Under the pieces are notes generated by a model. It was not told the DNA's origin and ran no database searches. It was given only the letters and a program-made list of their open reading frames with translations. Source: Labia minor (lineage: Eukaryota; Arthropoda; Insecta; Dermaptera; Spongiphoridae). From it: DNA of 64,000 bases. Both the position numbers and the translations under genes were made by a program. Of the stretch, positions 20,417 through 25,894 are shown piece after piece. Numbering within the stretch: position 1 is the first letter of the stretch; each line of letters starts with the position of its first letter. The stretch lies in the NCBI GenBank assembly GCA_963082975.1, contig OY720344.1:64694546-64758545 (forward strand). The letters run 5' to 3'.

Positions 20417-20995
20417 TATAGGATCTGAAAAAATGAAATTTATTTTATTTTATTATTTTCCTACGAAGATGTTCTCGGAGCGACTAAGCAAATTCCTGTT
20501 GCGCCGGGACATATATTTAAAACCTCGCTACCCCCTCTTAGAAGCTTACGATTGGCTATAATAAGCTGGCCATCTATTGGCTCTTCGTTCAGCGCCTAGC
20601 ACGCTATTGGTTATCGAGAGTCCCCACCACTCCGCCTAGATGTCGCCAGCCGGGTATAAAAAGCCGTGAAGCAGGCTAGCTTGCCAGTTGCCAGTAGCAG
20701 CAGTAGCAGCAGTAGCAGTAGTAGCAGTTGTGATTCAAGACGTTAAGAAGAACATATACGAAGAACGAAGAACGAAGAACCGAAGATTTCCAAGACGTTT
20801 ATTTTTATCTGTGTATATATTTTTTGCTAATATTTCTAAACAAAAACCTTATATTTTTTGCTACACTTTTCAATAAAAACGATATATTTTTTGCTAATAC
20901 TTTTCATCAAAAACGATATTATTTTTGCTACTTTTTTCTTCAAAAACGATATTTTTTAATACATCTGCTTCACTATCGAAGCCACCAACCCTACA
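20417..20995 (+). repeat. 5' long terminal repeat
   Basis: The sequence matches the copy at 23664-24242. Its ends form a short imperfect inverted pair (TATAGG ... CCTACA). The left boundary is uncertain by a few bases because it abuts TA repeats, and the 3' copy is preceded by TGAGT, so a canonical TG start may lie there. A TATA box (TATAAAAAG, 20655-20663) and AATAAA (20872-20877) lie inside, giving the expected order of promoter then polyadenylation signal. A GCAGCAGTAGCAGCAGTAGC tract follows the likely start of transcription. Confidence 0.88.
20655..20663 (+). promoter_or_regulatory. LTR TATA box
   Basis: TATAAAAAG in a GC-rich context within the 5' LTR. Transcription would start about 25-30 bases downstream, near 20685. 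The matching site in the second LTR is 23902-23910. Confidence 0.75.
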
Positions 20996-20998
20996 ATT

Positions 20999-21017
20999 TG
21001 AGGGCTCAGTCCGAGAT
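20999..21017 (+). other. Primer-binding site, tRNA-Pro-like
   Basis: TGAGGGCTCAGTCCGAGAT starts three bases after the LTR end. It resembles a complement of the 3' end of tRNA-Pro (the TGGGGGCTCGTCC type) with two substitutions and one inserted base. The position fits a minus-strand primer site. The mismatches make the tRNA assignment tentative. Confidence 0.5.
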
Positions 21018-21109
21018 TGAAGAATCATTACCCCTAGTAACCACGAAGAAACAAGAGCCAATTCGAGGAAATATCCAGTCTTCAAGATACAAGACATACG
21101 CCTTTCAAA

Positions 21110-22363
21110 ATGACTTCCTTTGAAACTATCCCATTCGTTCAACGTCAGCTAGCCTTGGCTGAATTCAAGATTATAAAAAGTTTGCACAAAATTCTTTACG
21201 ACGAAGAAGCCGATCGAAAAAGCCGTAGCAAAGTAAAACGATTTTCTGGATTTGATTTCGAAAGAGAGTCGGAAGAATTCAAGAATCGACTTGAAACGAT
21301 GAACTCTTTAAACACAGCCACTTTAATTAAAATTGGAAACATTTTAAATATAGCTGAAAATTCTAAAGACGACATAATAAACGCTATTACAGATGTTTTA
21401 TTCAATTTGGCTGAATTTGGAAGATCATTAAATGAATCGGAAGCAGAAGAAGATGAAGAAGAAGAAGAAAACGAAGAAGAAGCAACTGAAGAAGTACGCC
21501 AAGTTCCATCTTCATTAAGATATCCCTCTGCTGTCAACATAAGAGATATCGAAGACTTGGTAAAGAAATTTGATGGTGCTAAAACATATTCAGTTAACCG
21601 CTGGATACAAGATATAGAAGACGAAGCAGACATCCATTTATTAGACGAAAGACAAACGATGATACTCGCAAGAAGATGTCTCACAGGACTTGCAAAATTG
21701 TATTTCGAAAATACAAAAAGTGTCAAGACATGGAGAGACATGAAAACGAGCCTGAGAAAACAATTTTCCTCAAAGATCGACGAAATCGAGATTCATCGAC
21801 AATTGGGAAACAGGAAAATGAAAAGAGGCGAAGATGCAACTGAATATTTTATTCATATGCAAAAGATTGCGAATCAAGGGGATATAAAGCCGAAATTACT
21901 AATTGAATATATAATTAATGGAATTGAAGATCCTCATAGCAAAATATTTCTAGTTGGAACAAAAACATTGACAGATCTTCAACAAAAACTAAACATGTTG
22001 GGCGACTTTATAAAAGAAGCATCAATAAGAAGAAACCCTGTTGAAAGAAAAGATACTAATCAGAAGCATACTGTCACAGAAAAGAAAAAAGAAATCACAA
22101 GATGTTTCAACTGTGGAGACACTTCACATTTTTCTAACGAGTGTCCATCTAAGAACAGAGGCGTCAAATGTTTTAAATGTAATAATTTTGGACATAAATC
22201 ATTTGATTGCCCCACTAAGAAAAAAGAAATATATAAAATAGAAACAAAACCGTCAACTAGAAATCACAAGCTCGTATCAATCCAAAATTTAGAAATAAAT
22301 GACGATGCTCAAAGGGAAGAAAATTTCAAAACAATGACAGTGGACAAAAAGAAGAAAAATTAA
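21110..22363 (+). CDS. gag: Gag polyprotein with a DEK-like N-terminal domain
   Basis: The 417-residue structural protein of the retrotransposon. Residues 20-105 resemble the pseudo-SAP/SAP region of the host chromatin protein DEK: LHKILY at 25-30, RFSGFDFE at 44-51 and a helical SAP-like segment at 64-103 ending in GRSL. An acidic tract (108-129, mostly Glu) follows, also as in DEK. Residues about 145-305 form a retrotransposon Gag/capsid region, with W165, W208 and the segment EDATEYFIHMQKIANQ. Two CCHC knuckles follow at C332-C335-H340-C345 and C354-C357-H362-C367, giving RNA binding. The start is the first ATG after a 114-base leader. The element is transcribed from its own LTR. The fusion is seen in the sequence; the DEK relationship comes from motif comparison by eye and the role in chromatin targeting is inferred. 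Confidence 0.9.
   Translation: MTSFETIPFVQRQLALAEFKIIKSLHKILYDEEADRKSRSKVKRFSGFDFERESEEFKNRLETMNSLNTATLIKIGNILNIAENSKDDIINAITDVLFNLAEFGRSLNESEAEEDEEEEENEEEATEEVRQVPSSLRYPSAVNIRDIEDLVKKFDGAKTYSVNRWIQDIEDEADIHLLDERQTMILARRCLTGLAKLYFENTKSVKTWRDMKTSLRKQFSSKIDEIEIHRQLGNRKMKRGEDATEYFIHMQKIANQGDIKPKLLIEYIINGIEDPHSKIFLVGTKTLTDLQQKLNMLGDFIKEASIRRNPVERKDTNQKHTVTEKKKEITRCFNCGDTSHFSNECPSKNRGVKCFKCNNFGHKSFDCPTKKKEIYKIETKPSTRNHKLVSIQNLEINDDAQREENFKTMTVDKKKKN
22321..22327 (+). promoter_or_regulatory. Candidate -1 ribosomal frameshift site
   Basis: AAATTTC is read in the gag frame as A-AAT-TTC, which fits the X-XXY-YYZ slippery pattern. It lies in the short region, about 19 codons, where the gag frame and the -1 frame of ORF2 are both open, 33 bases before the gag stop. 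A downstream pseudoknot was not identified by eye. Frameshifting here would join ORF2 to Gag. Confidence 0.5.
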
Positions 22364-22494
22364 CATCAAACGAAGAAATACAAACGAAAGAAAATTTAGA
22401 AATAAATGATGATGAACAAAAAGAAGAAAAATTACTATCTAATGAGGATATACAAAATAATGAAGAAAGCTTAGAAACAAAAGAGAATATCGAA

Positions 22495-23628
22495 ATGGAT
22501 GAAGACTCGATAACAAATGTGGAAGTCCAAGAGGAAAATTTAGAAACAAATATTCAAAACGAAGAAAATATAGAATTAAATATTGATGACAAAAAGAAAG
22601 AAAATGTAAATTTAACAAATGTAGATAAACAAGAGCAAAGCCTAAAGGATGATGATGAAAATGTACAAAAAAATAAAAAAGATACAGAATATATAAATGA
22701 AATAGAAATGGAAGAATCTGATGAAAAAGACGAAAGCACCTCGATGGAAACAGATGAAGTGAAAAAGTCTAAAGAAGTGACAAAAGAACAAAAAACAGAA
22801 TCCGAAACTAAGTCAAAAGAAGAGAAAACAGAGAAAATTGATACGAAAGAAACTAAAGTAAATGAATCTACAGAAGAAAAAGAAACAACTAAAGAGGAAA
22901 AAGATGTGAAAAAGGCAGAAGAAACCAAACCAGAAGTTAAAGAAGAAAAAGAAGCCTCTTCTGAAGAGAAGAAGAAAGAAGAGAGTGGAAATGAAAAGAT
23001 GGAGGTAGAAAAAAAAGAAGAACCAGAAAAGAAAGAAGTAATAGAAGAAAAAGAAGAAACTGATAAGGAAGAATCTGATATAAAAGAAGAGACTGAAAAA
23101 GAGGAAGTCAAAGAAAAGAATGAAGTTGCAGATAAAGAATCTCCAAAAACTGATAATGGAAAAAAGACTGAAAGTAAAGTTAATGAAGAGGATAAATCAA
23201 ATGAAGGTGAATCAATGGAAGTTGATAAGGATGAAAGCACTTCAGAAGATCAAAATAAAACAATTCGAGAAGAAGATTTTGATCCCAATGATAAAATTTT
23301 TGATCTTGATAAAACACAAACTACAAGTAAAGTTGGAACTGAAGATAGTATATTAAATAAAGAAAAGGAAGACTTTAATTTTTATGAGGTTAGTGAATTA
23401 AAAGAAATAATGAATGTAAATTTAGATTTAGAAACAGACATAAATAATTTATCCGAATCACAAGATATGGATGATAAGAAAAGTATATTTGATGTGCAAT
23501 CTAATAAACTATTTTATCCTGCTCATTGTGTGAAGAAAGAAATTGATAAATATGGAAAAAGGAAGAAGGTGAAGTGGAGAGACAAGATAGAATGTTGTGA
23601 AGGCGCCGATGACAACTACGAGAATTGA
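22495..23628 (+). CDS. Charged Glu/Lys-rich ORF2 in place of pol
   Basis: This frame codes for 377 residues from its first ATG. It is open from about 22300, so the product could be about 435 residues if reached by -1 frameshifting from gag. Residues 1-260 are low-complexity, with repeated KEE, EEK and EVKEEKE runs plus Ser/Thr-Asp/Glu, probably disordered or helical. The last about 40 residues change character: FYPAHCVKKEIDKYGKRKKV, then KWRDKIECCEGADDNYEN, directly before the polypurine tract. That end could be a remnant of a pol C-terminal tail, because such tails lie at this position in gypsy-like elements. No protease, RT or integrase motifs are visible. Function is unknown. Confidence 0.75.
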   Translation: MDEDSITNVEVQEENLETNIQNEENIELNIDDKKKENVNLTNVDKQEQSLKDDDENVQKNKKDTEYINEIEMEESDEKDESTSMETDEVKKSKEVTKEQKTESETKSKEEKTEKIDTKETKVNESTEEKETTKEEKDVKKAEETKPEVKEEKEASSEEKKKEESGNEKMEVEKKEEPEKKEVIEEKEETDKEESDIKEETEKEEVKEKNEVADKESPKTDNGKKTESKVNEEDKSNEGESMEVDKDESTSEDQNKTIREEDFDPNDKIFDLDKTQTTSKVGTEDSILNKEKEDFNFYEVSELKEIMNVNLDLETDINNLSESQDMDDKKSIFDVQSNKLFYPAHCVKKEIDKYGKRKKVKWRDKIECCEGADDNYEN

Positions 23629-23663: not shown

Positions 23664-24242
23664 TATAGGATCTGAAAAAATGAAATTTATTTTATTTTAT
23701 TATTTTCCTACGAAGATGTTCTCGGAGCGACTAAGCAAATTCCTGTTGCGCCGGGACATATATTTAAAACCTCGCTACCCCCTCTTAGAAGCTTACGATT
23801 GGCTATAATAAGCTGGCCATCTATTGGCTCTTCGTTCAGCGCCTAGCACGCTATTGGTTATCGAGAGTCCCCACCACTCCGCCTAGATGTTGCCAGCCGG
23901 GTATAAAAAGCCGTGAAGCAGGCTAGCTTGCCAGTTGCCAGTAGCAGCAGTAGCAGCAGTAGCAGTAGTAGCAGTTGTGATTCAAGACGTTAAGAAGAAC
24001 ATATACGAAGAACGAAGAACGAAGAACCGAAGATTTCCAAGACGTTTATTTTTATCTGTGTATATATTTTTTGCTAATATTTCTAAACAAAAACCTTATA
24101 TTTTTTGCTACACTTTTCAATAAAAACGATATATTTTTTGCTAATACTTTTCATCAAAAACGATATTATTTTTGCTACTTTTTTCTTCAAAAACGATATT
24201 TTTTAATACATCTGCTTCACTATCGAAGCCACCAACCCTACA
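23664..24242 (+). repeat. 3' long terminal repeat (middle LTR of the array)
   Basis: The LTR follows the purine tract AAAGAGGGGG (23649-23658). It carries TATA at 23902-23910 and AATAAA at 24119-24124. It differs from the 5' LTR at one base as read, which indicates a recent insertion. The sequence runs on into a second leader and gag start, so it serves as the 5' LTR of the partial downstream copy. Confidence 0.88.
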
Positions 24243-24535
24243 ATTTGAGGGCTCAGTCCGAGATTGAAGAATCATTACCCCTAGTAACCACGAAGAAACA
24301 AGAGCCAATTCGAGGAAATATCCAGTCTTCAAGATACAAGACATACGCCTTTCAAAATGACTTCCTTTGAAACTATCCCATTCGTTCAACGTCAGCTAGC
24401 CTTGGCTGAATTCAAGATTATATATATTTTTTGCTAATACTTTTCATCAAAAACGATATTATTTTTGCTACTTTTTTCTTCAAAAACGATATTTTTTAAT
24501 ACATCTGCTTCACTATCGAAGCCACCAACCCTACA
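24243..24535 (+). pseudogene. Deleted second copy: leader, gag start and LTR 3' end
   Basis: The sequence repeats the leader and the first 21 codons of gag (ATG at 24357), then jumps within TATATA at 24421 into the last 114 bases of an LTR, ending ...CCTACA at 24535. A tandem LTR-internal-LTR array followed by a deletion at a short TATA microhomology would explain it. The gag fragment cannot make a useful protein. Confidence 0.8.
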
Positions 24536-24547
24536 TATATATATATA

Positions 24548-25159
24548 CTAGCTGCTCCGAGCGCCTTCGGCGCTCTCCACACCTAGACGGGGGCTCCGCC
24601 CCTGTACCCCCTATAACCATCTAACTCCTACCCTGTCCCATCTCTATAGTTTTTTATATATGTTTATTTATGCAGAAAAAATTAATTGACATAATTATTA
24701 ATTTAATAAAATAAAATTTAATAATAAAATTTAATTTAATAAAATAAAATTATTTAATAAAATATTAAAATAATAAAAATTAATAAATTTGTAAAAAAAA
24801 TATATAATACTTAAAAAAAATATGCCTTTGCGAGTTTCGAACTAAGAGTGCAAAGTCATAAGATAACGCCTTAGACGGTTCACCCACGAACCACTTTTGT
24901 TTGGAAGTCTCCTATTACGATATATATATACATGTCAAATACATGGCAGTGCCTCTATGATCTCTAGCATTGTAACTAAACTATTTTCATTTAAATACCT
25001 CCCCCTGGACATACCTTACCAATTAGCCGTTTAATAAAAGAAGTCTGACATGCCCTGAGACCTACTAAATATGCATAAAAAATTTCATAAGAATCGGTCC
25101 AGCCGTTTCGGAGGAGTATTATTTCAAAGTTTTGTGACACGAGAATTTTATATATAAGA
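24548..25159 (-). mobile_element. Complete non-autonomous Helitron, copy 1 of a head-to-tail pair
   Basis: On the minus strand it runs from TCTTATATATAAAATTCTCG at 25159 to the hairpin GAGCGCCGAAGGCGCTC, 11 bases and CTAG at 24548. The length is 612 bp with no coding capacity. A tRNA-like module lies at 24823-24892. Its 5' end directly abuts the 3' CTAG of the next copy, without intervening bases, so the two are in tandem. The left neighbour is the LTR element's end plus a short TA run. Confidence 0.88.
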
Positions 25160-25894
25160 CTAGCTCATCCGAGCGCCTTCGGCGCTCTCCACACCTAGAC
25201 GGGGGCTCCGCCCCCTGTACCCCCCCGAGTGGTACATAGTATTTGGTTAAGAGTAGTAAAAGGTTTTCATCCATTTTGTTTCAATCAGTATATTACATAA
25301 AACATTCATTTCTTTTTGTGTTCTTATTTATAATATATTAGATCATATATTTCAAATGAATAATAAATAAATTAAAATGAGAACTTTTAGAATAAATTAT
25401 TTAATTGAATTGATAACGGAATTTTGTAAATTAAACCACATATTGATATTTGTTATTGTAAATTTATTCAAAAAATACAAAAATATACACAACGTTTCGA
25501 TTGCAGAAGTAGCAAATATCAATATGTGCTTTAATTTACAAAATTCCGTTATAAATAAAAACAACCACCAAAGCTTTAATAATTTAATATAATTGAATTG
25601 ATATTTGAATATTAGAATTTAAAATAAAAAGTGAAATATTACAATAATTTTTAAATTCTGAGCAAATGTCAAATTATCGCCACCAGCGCCTCTATGAGCT
25701 AGTATGGTAACTAAACTATTTTTAATTAATTAGCATTTCCTGGACACACCTTACCAATTAGCGGTTTTCTAAAGGAAGTCTGACATGCCCTGAGACCTAC
25801 TGAATATACATAAAAAATTTCATAAGAATCGGTCAAGCCGTTTCGGAGGAGTATGATTTCAAAGTTTTGTGACACGAGAATTTTATATATAAGA
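25160..25894 (-). mobile_element. Complete non-autonomous Helitron, copy 2 of the pair
   Basis: The same termini occur, with TC at 25894 and the hairpin and CTAG at 25160. The interior differs from copy 1: it lacks the tRNA-like module and instead holds an inverted repeat at 25413-25552. The 3' third matches the solo end at 15038-15205. The flanks are A before the 5' TC and copy 1 after the CTAG. Confidence 0.88.
25413..25552. repeat. Long hairpin inside a Helitron
   Basis: The arms are AACGGAATTTTGTAAATTAA with CCACATATTGATATTTG, and their near-complement at 25511-25552. They are separated by about 50 bases with TTTCGATTGCAG. Arms of about 40 bases with few mismatches could fold in RNA or mark a small foldback nested in the Helitron. 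Confidence 0.75.

What the first reader, a model, noticed from the sequence alone, without database searches (positions are those of the whole stretch)
21110..21500. Retrotransposon Gag with a captured DEK-like chromatin-binding domain
Seen: the first ~105 residues of this Gag contain LHKILY, then RFSGFDFE, then a SAP-like helical segment and a Glu-rich tract, in that order and with similar spacing. Known: DEK proteins of animals carry LHK-L-LY, FSGF-F-E and a SAP box in the same order, followed by acidic runs. Gag proteins of gypsy-like elements do not normally carry this. Inference: the element transduced a host DEK SAF/SAP region, which could tether the particle or the pre-integration complex to chromatin, bind element RNA or DNA, or interfere with host DEK. 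I do not know of a described DEK-Gag fusion.
Basis: partly seen in the sequence, partly recalled or inferred. Interest (0 to 1): 0.88.

Follow-up and report, generated by a model that had tools for sequence, protein, structure and literature searches.

The report
Retrotransposon capsid protein bearing DEK domain
A jumping gene in this genome makes a capsid protein that begins with a domain related to the DNA-binding part of the chromatin protein DEK; the fusion is real but old, shared by many related elements here and by spider elements, and its job is not yet known.

The parts
20417..20995 (+). 5' LTR (left edge lies in a TA microsatellite, so approximate to a few bases)
   Evidence: Direct repeat 20417-21175 / 23664-24422, 759 nt, 99.87%; right end ...CCTACA shared with 24242 and 24535
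21110..22363 (+). Gag ORF, 417 aa
   Evidence: homologous Gags
21110..21424 (+). DEK-type pseudo-SAP/SAP domain, Gag residues 1-105
21182..21199 (+). LHKILY motif
   Evidence: aligns with LHKLLY of human DEK
21239..21262 (+). RFSGFDFE motif; F45, G47, F48 and nearby S54 invariant in the ten Gag families aligned
21434..21493 (+). Glu-rich linker
   Evidence: not conserved in the spider Gags aligned
21539..22060 (+). Capsid region (Pfam match at Gag residues 202-272)
   Evidence: PF03732 E 3.9e-5, 24.2 bits vs cut-off 24.1; Arc/copia-like capsid fold of the spider homologue
22103..22210 (+). two CCHC zinc knuckles
   Evidence: PF00098 E 3.1e-9, two stretches; conserved C/H columns
22303..23628 (+). 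second ORF, Glu/Lys-rich (E+D 0.33, K+R 0.18), no Pfam hit, in another frame than gag; in 17 of 26 copies of 89% identity or more (window included) the frame through the domain stays open for 750 aa or more
23664..24242 (+). second LTR
24243..24421 (+). second copy of leader and first Gag codons, cut off
24422..24535 (+). third, partial LTR end (114 nt, 100% to 20882-20995)

Best explanation
Shown here: the window holds a young, pol-less Ty3/gypsy-type LTR element whose Gag starts with a domain homologous to the pseudo-SAP/SAP domain of DEK, and the domain is a long-standing N-terminal module of Gag in a whole lineage. Inferred: an ancestral element acquired it once from an animal DEK, through spliced RNA, before the sampled spider elements and those of this genome diverged or spread. 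Inferred, about 0.45: the module docks Gag, or the core with its new DNA, on nucleic acid or chromatin, through a kept basic helix 3 face (R36, R39) and K23, not by copying DEK's tripartite nucleosome grip, most of whose contacts are gone. Copies that lost the module would be mobilised in trans by Gag of other copies.
For: Homology and fold. Lineage-wide: 110 of the 150 capsid matches scored have a detected DEK-type domain upstream; gag-pol members L011, L015, L016 in one frame and L019 over two frames. Old: 14 Gags and 4 DEKs separate at 100/99, host dek with vertebrates. Selection: dN/dS of the domain 0.10-0.26 against nine siblings and 0.14 against diverged L025 (27 synonymous, 20 non-synonymous changes). 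Nucleic-acid side: Arg at the DEK K124 position in 14 of 14 Gags and Lys at R107 in 13 of 14. A sister Gag family has a canonical SAP domain at the same place (PF02037 E 8.1e-8, 32.2 bits, cut-off 23.9), which suggests that a SAP-class module was put there more than once. In host dek an intron, inferred from frames and GT..AG (no transcript seen), splits the domain in phase 0, and Gag reads straight across that point.
Against: Contact positions: vertebrate DEKs 9 of 9 basic, host DEK 7 of 9, Gags only 2-5 of 9; basic at R116 in 3 of 14 Gags, at R153 in 0 and at R168 in 0. The best kept position, K124, belongs to the pair whose reversal only somewhat lowered DEK binding (PMC12263440, passage). 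Helix 3 is not clearly richer in K/R than in host DEK (4): Gags have 2-6. Net charge over DEK 88-186 is -6 to +6 in Gags, +7 to +9 in DEKs. [quoted passage not shown] Fifteen siblings without a detected domain have amplified, so it seems not needed in cis. Some domain pairs show dN/dS near or above 1 (L010-L011 1.29, L011-L012 1.2, L013-L021 1.1). Spider domains alone are weak: against human DEK 8 to 411 of 2000 shuffles reach their scores, against host DEK 5-6 of 1000, hhalign 0.014 and 3e-4. Missing introns are expected of any element that copies through RNA. The SAP family may be unrelated or a remnant. No binding was measured.
Confidence: 0.45

Rival explanations
1. The domain is an assembly or matrix-like module: a stable helical fold at the Gag N-terminus that spaces, dimerises or binds element RNA in the particle, with no role on chromatin.
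For: Near-neutral net charge and loss of most DNA contacts; it sits where matrix lies in retroviral Gag (recalled); DEK SAP domains touch each other through helices 2 and 5 on the nucleosome (PMC12263440 section 9, read); purifying selection in the window's family.
Against: L013/L014 keep the domain without detected capsid or knuckles, and copies without a detected domain amplify; replacement by a canonical SAP domain in a sister family points to nucleic acid.
Confidence: 0.3
2. It interferes with the host's DEK, as a decoy that competes for DEK partners or sites and eases silencing of the element.
For: Direct homology to host DEK (score 93 for the window, up to 121 for L016); L013/L014 encode domain plus a Lys/Glu-rich tail, an outline like DEK's own.
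Against: Most DNA-contact positions and the histone-binding region are missing, so it would compete poorly for nucleosomes; no expression or interaction data.
Confidence: 0.1
3. This element recently transduced the dek gene of its present host.
For: Clear homology and an uninterrupted reading of the domain.
Against: Shared with nine other own-genome families at 22-33% identity to the window's domain, with P0001, P0002 and the spider Gags; host dek groups with vertebrate DEK.
Confidence: 0.02
4. Convergence: a helical bundle that happens to resemble DEK.
For: The window's model is of middling confidence (pLDDT 74, pTM 0.64), and no Foldseek match reaches E 0.001.
Confidence: 0.02

Closest known systems
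DEK (human; PDB 2jx3, 8kcy, 9l1x), pseudo-SAP/SAP domain
   Same: Sequence, order of motifs and predicted fold over about 100 residues
   Different: No histone-binding region, no DEK-C hit in the Gag or second ORF, 3 of 9 DNA-contact positions basic in the window; fused to capsid and zinc knuckles
Chromodomain-bearing LTR retrotransposons (chromodomain named as a known accessory domain in PMC6338049, passages read)
   Same: A host-type chromatin domain carried by a Ty3/gypsy element
   Different: There the domain is at the end of integrase (recalled); here it is at the start of Gag and of DEK type
Foamy virus Gag and MLV p12 chromatin binding (PMC12125541, PMC6021111, seen as search listing with the start of the abstract only)
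   Same: Gag-borne nucleosome contact is an established strategy
   Different: Those are short motifs (recalled); here it is a folded domain, and contact is not shown
Gags of proteins named Trichonephila clavipes (P0004-P0011, P0022)
   Same: DEK-type domain, capsid, knuckles, with protease or RT in some
   Different: Domain more diverged; no Glu-rich linker; public names call them only Tf2-9, 412, 17.6-like or uncharacterized

Membership tests
DEK protein | Homologous pseudo-SAP/SAP domain | tested here: met
DEK protein | Fold of the pseudo-SAP/SAP domain | tested here: met
DEK protein | Nine basic nucleosomal-DNA contacts (107, 111, 116, 124, 125, 144, 153, 158, 168; PMC12263440) | tested here: not met
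   window 3 of 9; 14 Gags 2-5 of 9; host DEK 7, three vertebrates 9
DEK protein | Histone-binding region upstream of the domain (residues 52-68) | tested here: not met
   Gag residue 1 aligns at about DEK 85
DEK protein | C-terminal DEK-C domain | tested here: not met
   no PF08766 row at E up to 1 in Gag or the second ORF; the host dek has this region
Pfam SAP (PF02037) | Score above curated cut-off | tested here: not met
   window Gag: not listed at E up to 1; sister family L045 passes, 32.2 vs 23.9 bits
Ty3/gypsy LTR retrotransposon | Paired LTRs | tested here: met
Ty3/gypsy LTR retrotransposon | Gag capsid and CCHC knuckles | tested here: met
Ty3/gypsy LTR retrotransposon | Protease, RT, RNase H, then integrase | tested here: not met
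   not found in the window copy, read as a non-autonomous derivative; present in this order in relatives L011, L015, L016
Gag chromatin tether (foamy virus, MLV p12) | Direct nucleosome binding needed for integration | not testable with these tools
   needs biochemistry

The most novel reading that the evidence does not exclude
A lineage of Ty3/gypsy elements (spiders and this genome, probably arthropods at large) captured the DEK chromatin domain once, long ago, and has used it ever since as Gag's own chromatin or DNA docking domain, keeping a basic helix 3 while dropping DEK's other contacts, and in one family exchanging it for a plain SAP domain. From it have split off capsid-less LTR parasites (L013/L014 type) that encode little more than a DEK look-alike: DEK-type domain plus Lys/Glu-rich tail.
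Probability: 0.35. Interest if true: 0.86.

Novelty: new variant of a known kind. Interest (0 to 1): 0.72.

Why it matters
How retroelement cores find and hold chromatin is known for a few retroviral Gags and chromodomain integrases. A Gag lineage built around a captured DEK-type domain, with natural variants that have it, lack it, or carry SAP instead in one genome, makes the question testable by comparing insertion sites and spread of the variants. It also suggests that DEK's fold can be kept while its nucleosome contacts are lost or rewritten, and it would help annotate many elements now named only by pol similarity.

Tried and rejected
Region search with Gag 1-110 in 5.8 billion proteins: 102 candidates, none at E up to 1. 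DEK search: 160 proteins, 120 listed, those with an organism name being vertebrates, so the only arthropod-side DEK I had is the host's own. Two viral-contig scans found no relative. BFVD fold search: best E 0.62. The capsid tree left the place of the domain-less P0003/P0014/P0020 unresolved, so gain versus loss outside this lineage is open. The first DEK-domain tree, without host DEK, was superseded. A relation between the L045 SAP domain and the DEK-type domain was tested by hhalign and not found (E 0.32 and 0.13). The Troyka paper PMC12440569 (passages only) holds no mention of DEK or SAP in its main text. I considered a ribosomal frameshift joining gag and the second ORF; since 17 of 26 copies (window included) have one open frame of 750 aa or more, a lesion in this copy is likelier. 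The two domain searches missed the 40-41% capsid group, in which the two copies read of six do carry the domain, so counts of absence are upper bounds except where read.

Full report
WHAT IS THERE. The finding lies in a young LTR element. A direct repeat of 759 nt at 99.87% (20417-21175 and 23664-24422) marks two LTRs, each followed by the same leader and first Gag codons; after the second, 24422-24535 is a third, partial LTR end. Between the first two lie a 417-aa Gag (21110-22363) and a Glu/Lys-rich ORF in another frame (22303-23628) with no Pfam match at E up to 1. No protease, RT or integrase was found between the LTRs, so I read the copy as non-autonomous. The Gag has a Retrotrans_gag match (24.2 bits, cut-off 24.1) and two CCHC knuckles.

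THE DOMAIN IS DEK-TYPE. phmmer of residues 1-134 against the PDB sequences gives DEK at E 2e-6, 1.5e-5 and 1.6e-5, then nothing below E 3. Against human DEK the window scores 98, P0001 61 and P0002 76, where 2000 shuffles reach at most 59, 60 and 57. Five control stretches of Gags are within their shuffles. The eight spider domains tested are weak: 8 to 411 of 2000 shuffles reach their scores. By hhalign the window alone gives E 2.7e-8, P0002 1.4e-5, P0001 5.7e-4, spiders 0.014, and the combined Gag profile 1e-10. Ten Gag families of this genome against host plus three vertebrate DEKs give 5.3e-17, and 1.1e-16 without the window; spiders against these ten give 1.7e-12. These are single-comparison E-values. 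Each of ten own-genome Gag domains, and P0001 and P0002, beats 1000 shuffles against host DEK; for two spider domains 5 and 6 shuffles reach the score. Pfam SAP does not list the window's domain.

NOT A PRIVATE CAPTURE. Of 37 homologous proteins, 21 were aligned with the window. Eleven carry the domain: P0001, P0002 and nine proteins named Trichonephila clavipes. Three have another or short N-terminus (P0003 and P0014 of Loxostege, and P0020; these are gene models, so a missed start is possible). Seven begin downstream. In the window's own genome the domain gave 134 matches (150 of 259 candidates scored), and a sister domain 150 (150 of 247 scored). Merged, they make 220 loci. Several relatives are full elements: L011, L015 and L016 with Gag or knuckles, protease, RT, RNase H and integrase in one frame, and L019 over two frames, where the domain's start lies outside the frame; some Gag, knuckle and protease scores are below Pfam's cut-offs. 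L010, L018, L020 and L021 showed Gag and/or knuckles with protease and no RT; of L012 only the part after the knuckles was scanned (protease, no RT).

HOST DEK. Frog DEK found one clear host gene on C1: residues 100-217 at 45%, E 7e-23, and the C-terminal part about 1 kb downstream. The other rows (41 of 43 at E up to 0.1) are weaker, many of them places of the Gag families, the best E 1.1e-5 for the relic L028. Inside the host domain a phase-0 intron, inferred from frames and GT..AG, lies between ...IPRIEAKIM and KNKADD...; Gag reads across this point. That fits capture through spliced RNA, but any element copying through RNA would lack introns. In a tree of 14 Gag domains and 4 DEKs the DEKs, host included, are one side of a 100/99 branch. 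So the host's dek does not look like the direct source. That DEK gave to Gag and not the reverse rests on my recollection that plants also have DEK.

A MODULE THAT COMES, GOES AND IS SWAPPED. Of the 150 capsid matches scored (762 candidates), 110 have a detected DEK-type domain upstream, 15 a SAP domain and 25 neither. Of the 25, six belong to a 40-41% group in which the two copies read (L042, L046) do carry a DEK-type domain. Fifteen are siblings of the window's element at 94-97% capsid identity; four of these were read, and all four share one in-frame junction that removes the domain and the acidic tract (Gag then begins MTSFESSTPSSLRYPSAVNI). The last four (one partial sibling, three others) were not examined. 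The L045 family has a canonical SAP domain at the same place (PF02037 E 8.1e-8, above cut-off), with 32 matches of 39 scored. L013 and L014 keep the domain followed directly by Lys/Glu-rich repeats. Pfam found nothing in the two halves of L013 nor in the second half of L014 (its first half was not scanned), and their DNA matches the gag-pol element L011 only in leader and domain and in the last 52 nt. Yet their LTR pairs are 100% identical, and L013's LTR is 99.4% identical to L012's.

SELECTION. The domain's dN/dS is 0.10-0.26 between the window and nine siblings, on 1-5 synonymous and 1-3 non-synonymous changes each. Against the diverged L025 it is 0.14, on 27 and 20 changes. In the group L010, L011, L012, L013, L014, L021 the values run from 0.25 to 1.29, apart from two pairs with a single change each. 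Constraint is clear in the window's family and mixed elsewhere.

HOW IT MIGHT WORK. In the DEK-nucleosome structure (PMC12263440: section 9 read whole, passages of section 10 and others) the SAP domain touches dyad DNA with R107, K111, R116 and K144 and linker DNA with K124, K125, R153, K158 and R168. Charge reversal of R107/R116 or of R153/K158/R168 drastically reduced the complexes; reversal of K124/K125 reduced binding only somewhat. DEK without the histone-binding region (52-68) was substantially defective. In the 14 Gags 2-5 of these nine positions are basic (window 3), against 9 in three vertebrate DEKs and 7 in host DEK. The K124 position is Arg in 14 of 14 Gags and R107 is Lys in 13 of 14; R153 and R168 are basic in none, R116 in 3. 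Helix 3 carries 6 basic residues in the window and 2-5 in the other Gags; the vertebrate DEKs have 2 and host DEK 4, so enrichment is not shown. R36 and R39 are invariant in ten own-genome families. So DEK's nucleosome grip is not preserved as such, while one basic face is. With SAP at the same place in a sister family, a role in binding nucleic acid or chromatin is the best single reading, about 0.45; assembly or RNA binding inside the particle is next, about 0.3.

NOVELTY. Full-text searches of the held library (retrotransposon, DEK, SAP domain, Gag; SAP domain, LTR retrotransposon, gag; DEK domain, retrotransposon; Trichonephila clavipes, retrotransposon, gag; protein DEK, retrotransposon, gag) listed 0, 1, 2, 0 and 3 papers, none of whose titles or abstract starts points to such a fusion. 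These papers were not opened, and most subscription journals and all preprints are missing from the library. Chromodomains in LTR elements are known (PMC6338049, passages), so I rate this a new variant of a known kind.

Noticed in passing
L038-L041 (C6:48018223, C5:60495566, C9:40526512, C1:38175895 and eleven further capsid rows not read): A subfamily of the window's element without the DEK-type domain; the four copies read share one in-frame junction. Fifteen copies in all show no detected domain.
   Followed up: partly
L045, L047-L052 (C1:99326633 and others): Gag family with a canonical SAP domain at the N-terminus instead of the DEK-type domain, with frames up to 1375 aa.
   Followed up: partly
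L013:1959-3665, L014:1784-3538: LTR elements with identical LTR pairs encoding the DEK-type domain followed by Lys/Glu-rich repeats, without detected capsid or knuckles.
   Followed up: partly
window:22303-23628; L010, L012, L013, L014, L022, L023: RT-less members of two families end in Glu/Lys-rich stretches (E+D 0.29-0.33, K+R 0.18-0.26), partly built of short tandem repeats in the window, L013 and L014. Cause unknown.
   Followed up: partly
G000 C10:20652357-20687522: Six DEK-type domain loci within about 35 kb on one strand, frames 179-421 aa: a local cluster, perhaps tandem copies or a host-owned gene group.
   Followed up: no
window:24243-24535: Truncated second leader and Gag start joined to a third LTR end: a tandem or aberrant reverse-transcription product.
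   Followed up: partly
window:31985-32533 (-): Cysteine-knuckle ORF resembling the first ORF of a non-LTR element (by eye); weak knuckle similarity to Gags only.
   Followed up: no
window:15026-15101, 24536-24611, 25148-25223: A GC-rich repeated motif in an AT-rich window, one copy directly beside the element.
   Followed up: no
window:27243-27314 (-): tRNA match (Rfam RF00005, 56.1 bits).
   Followed up: no
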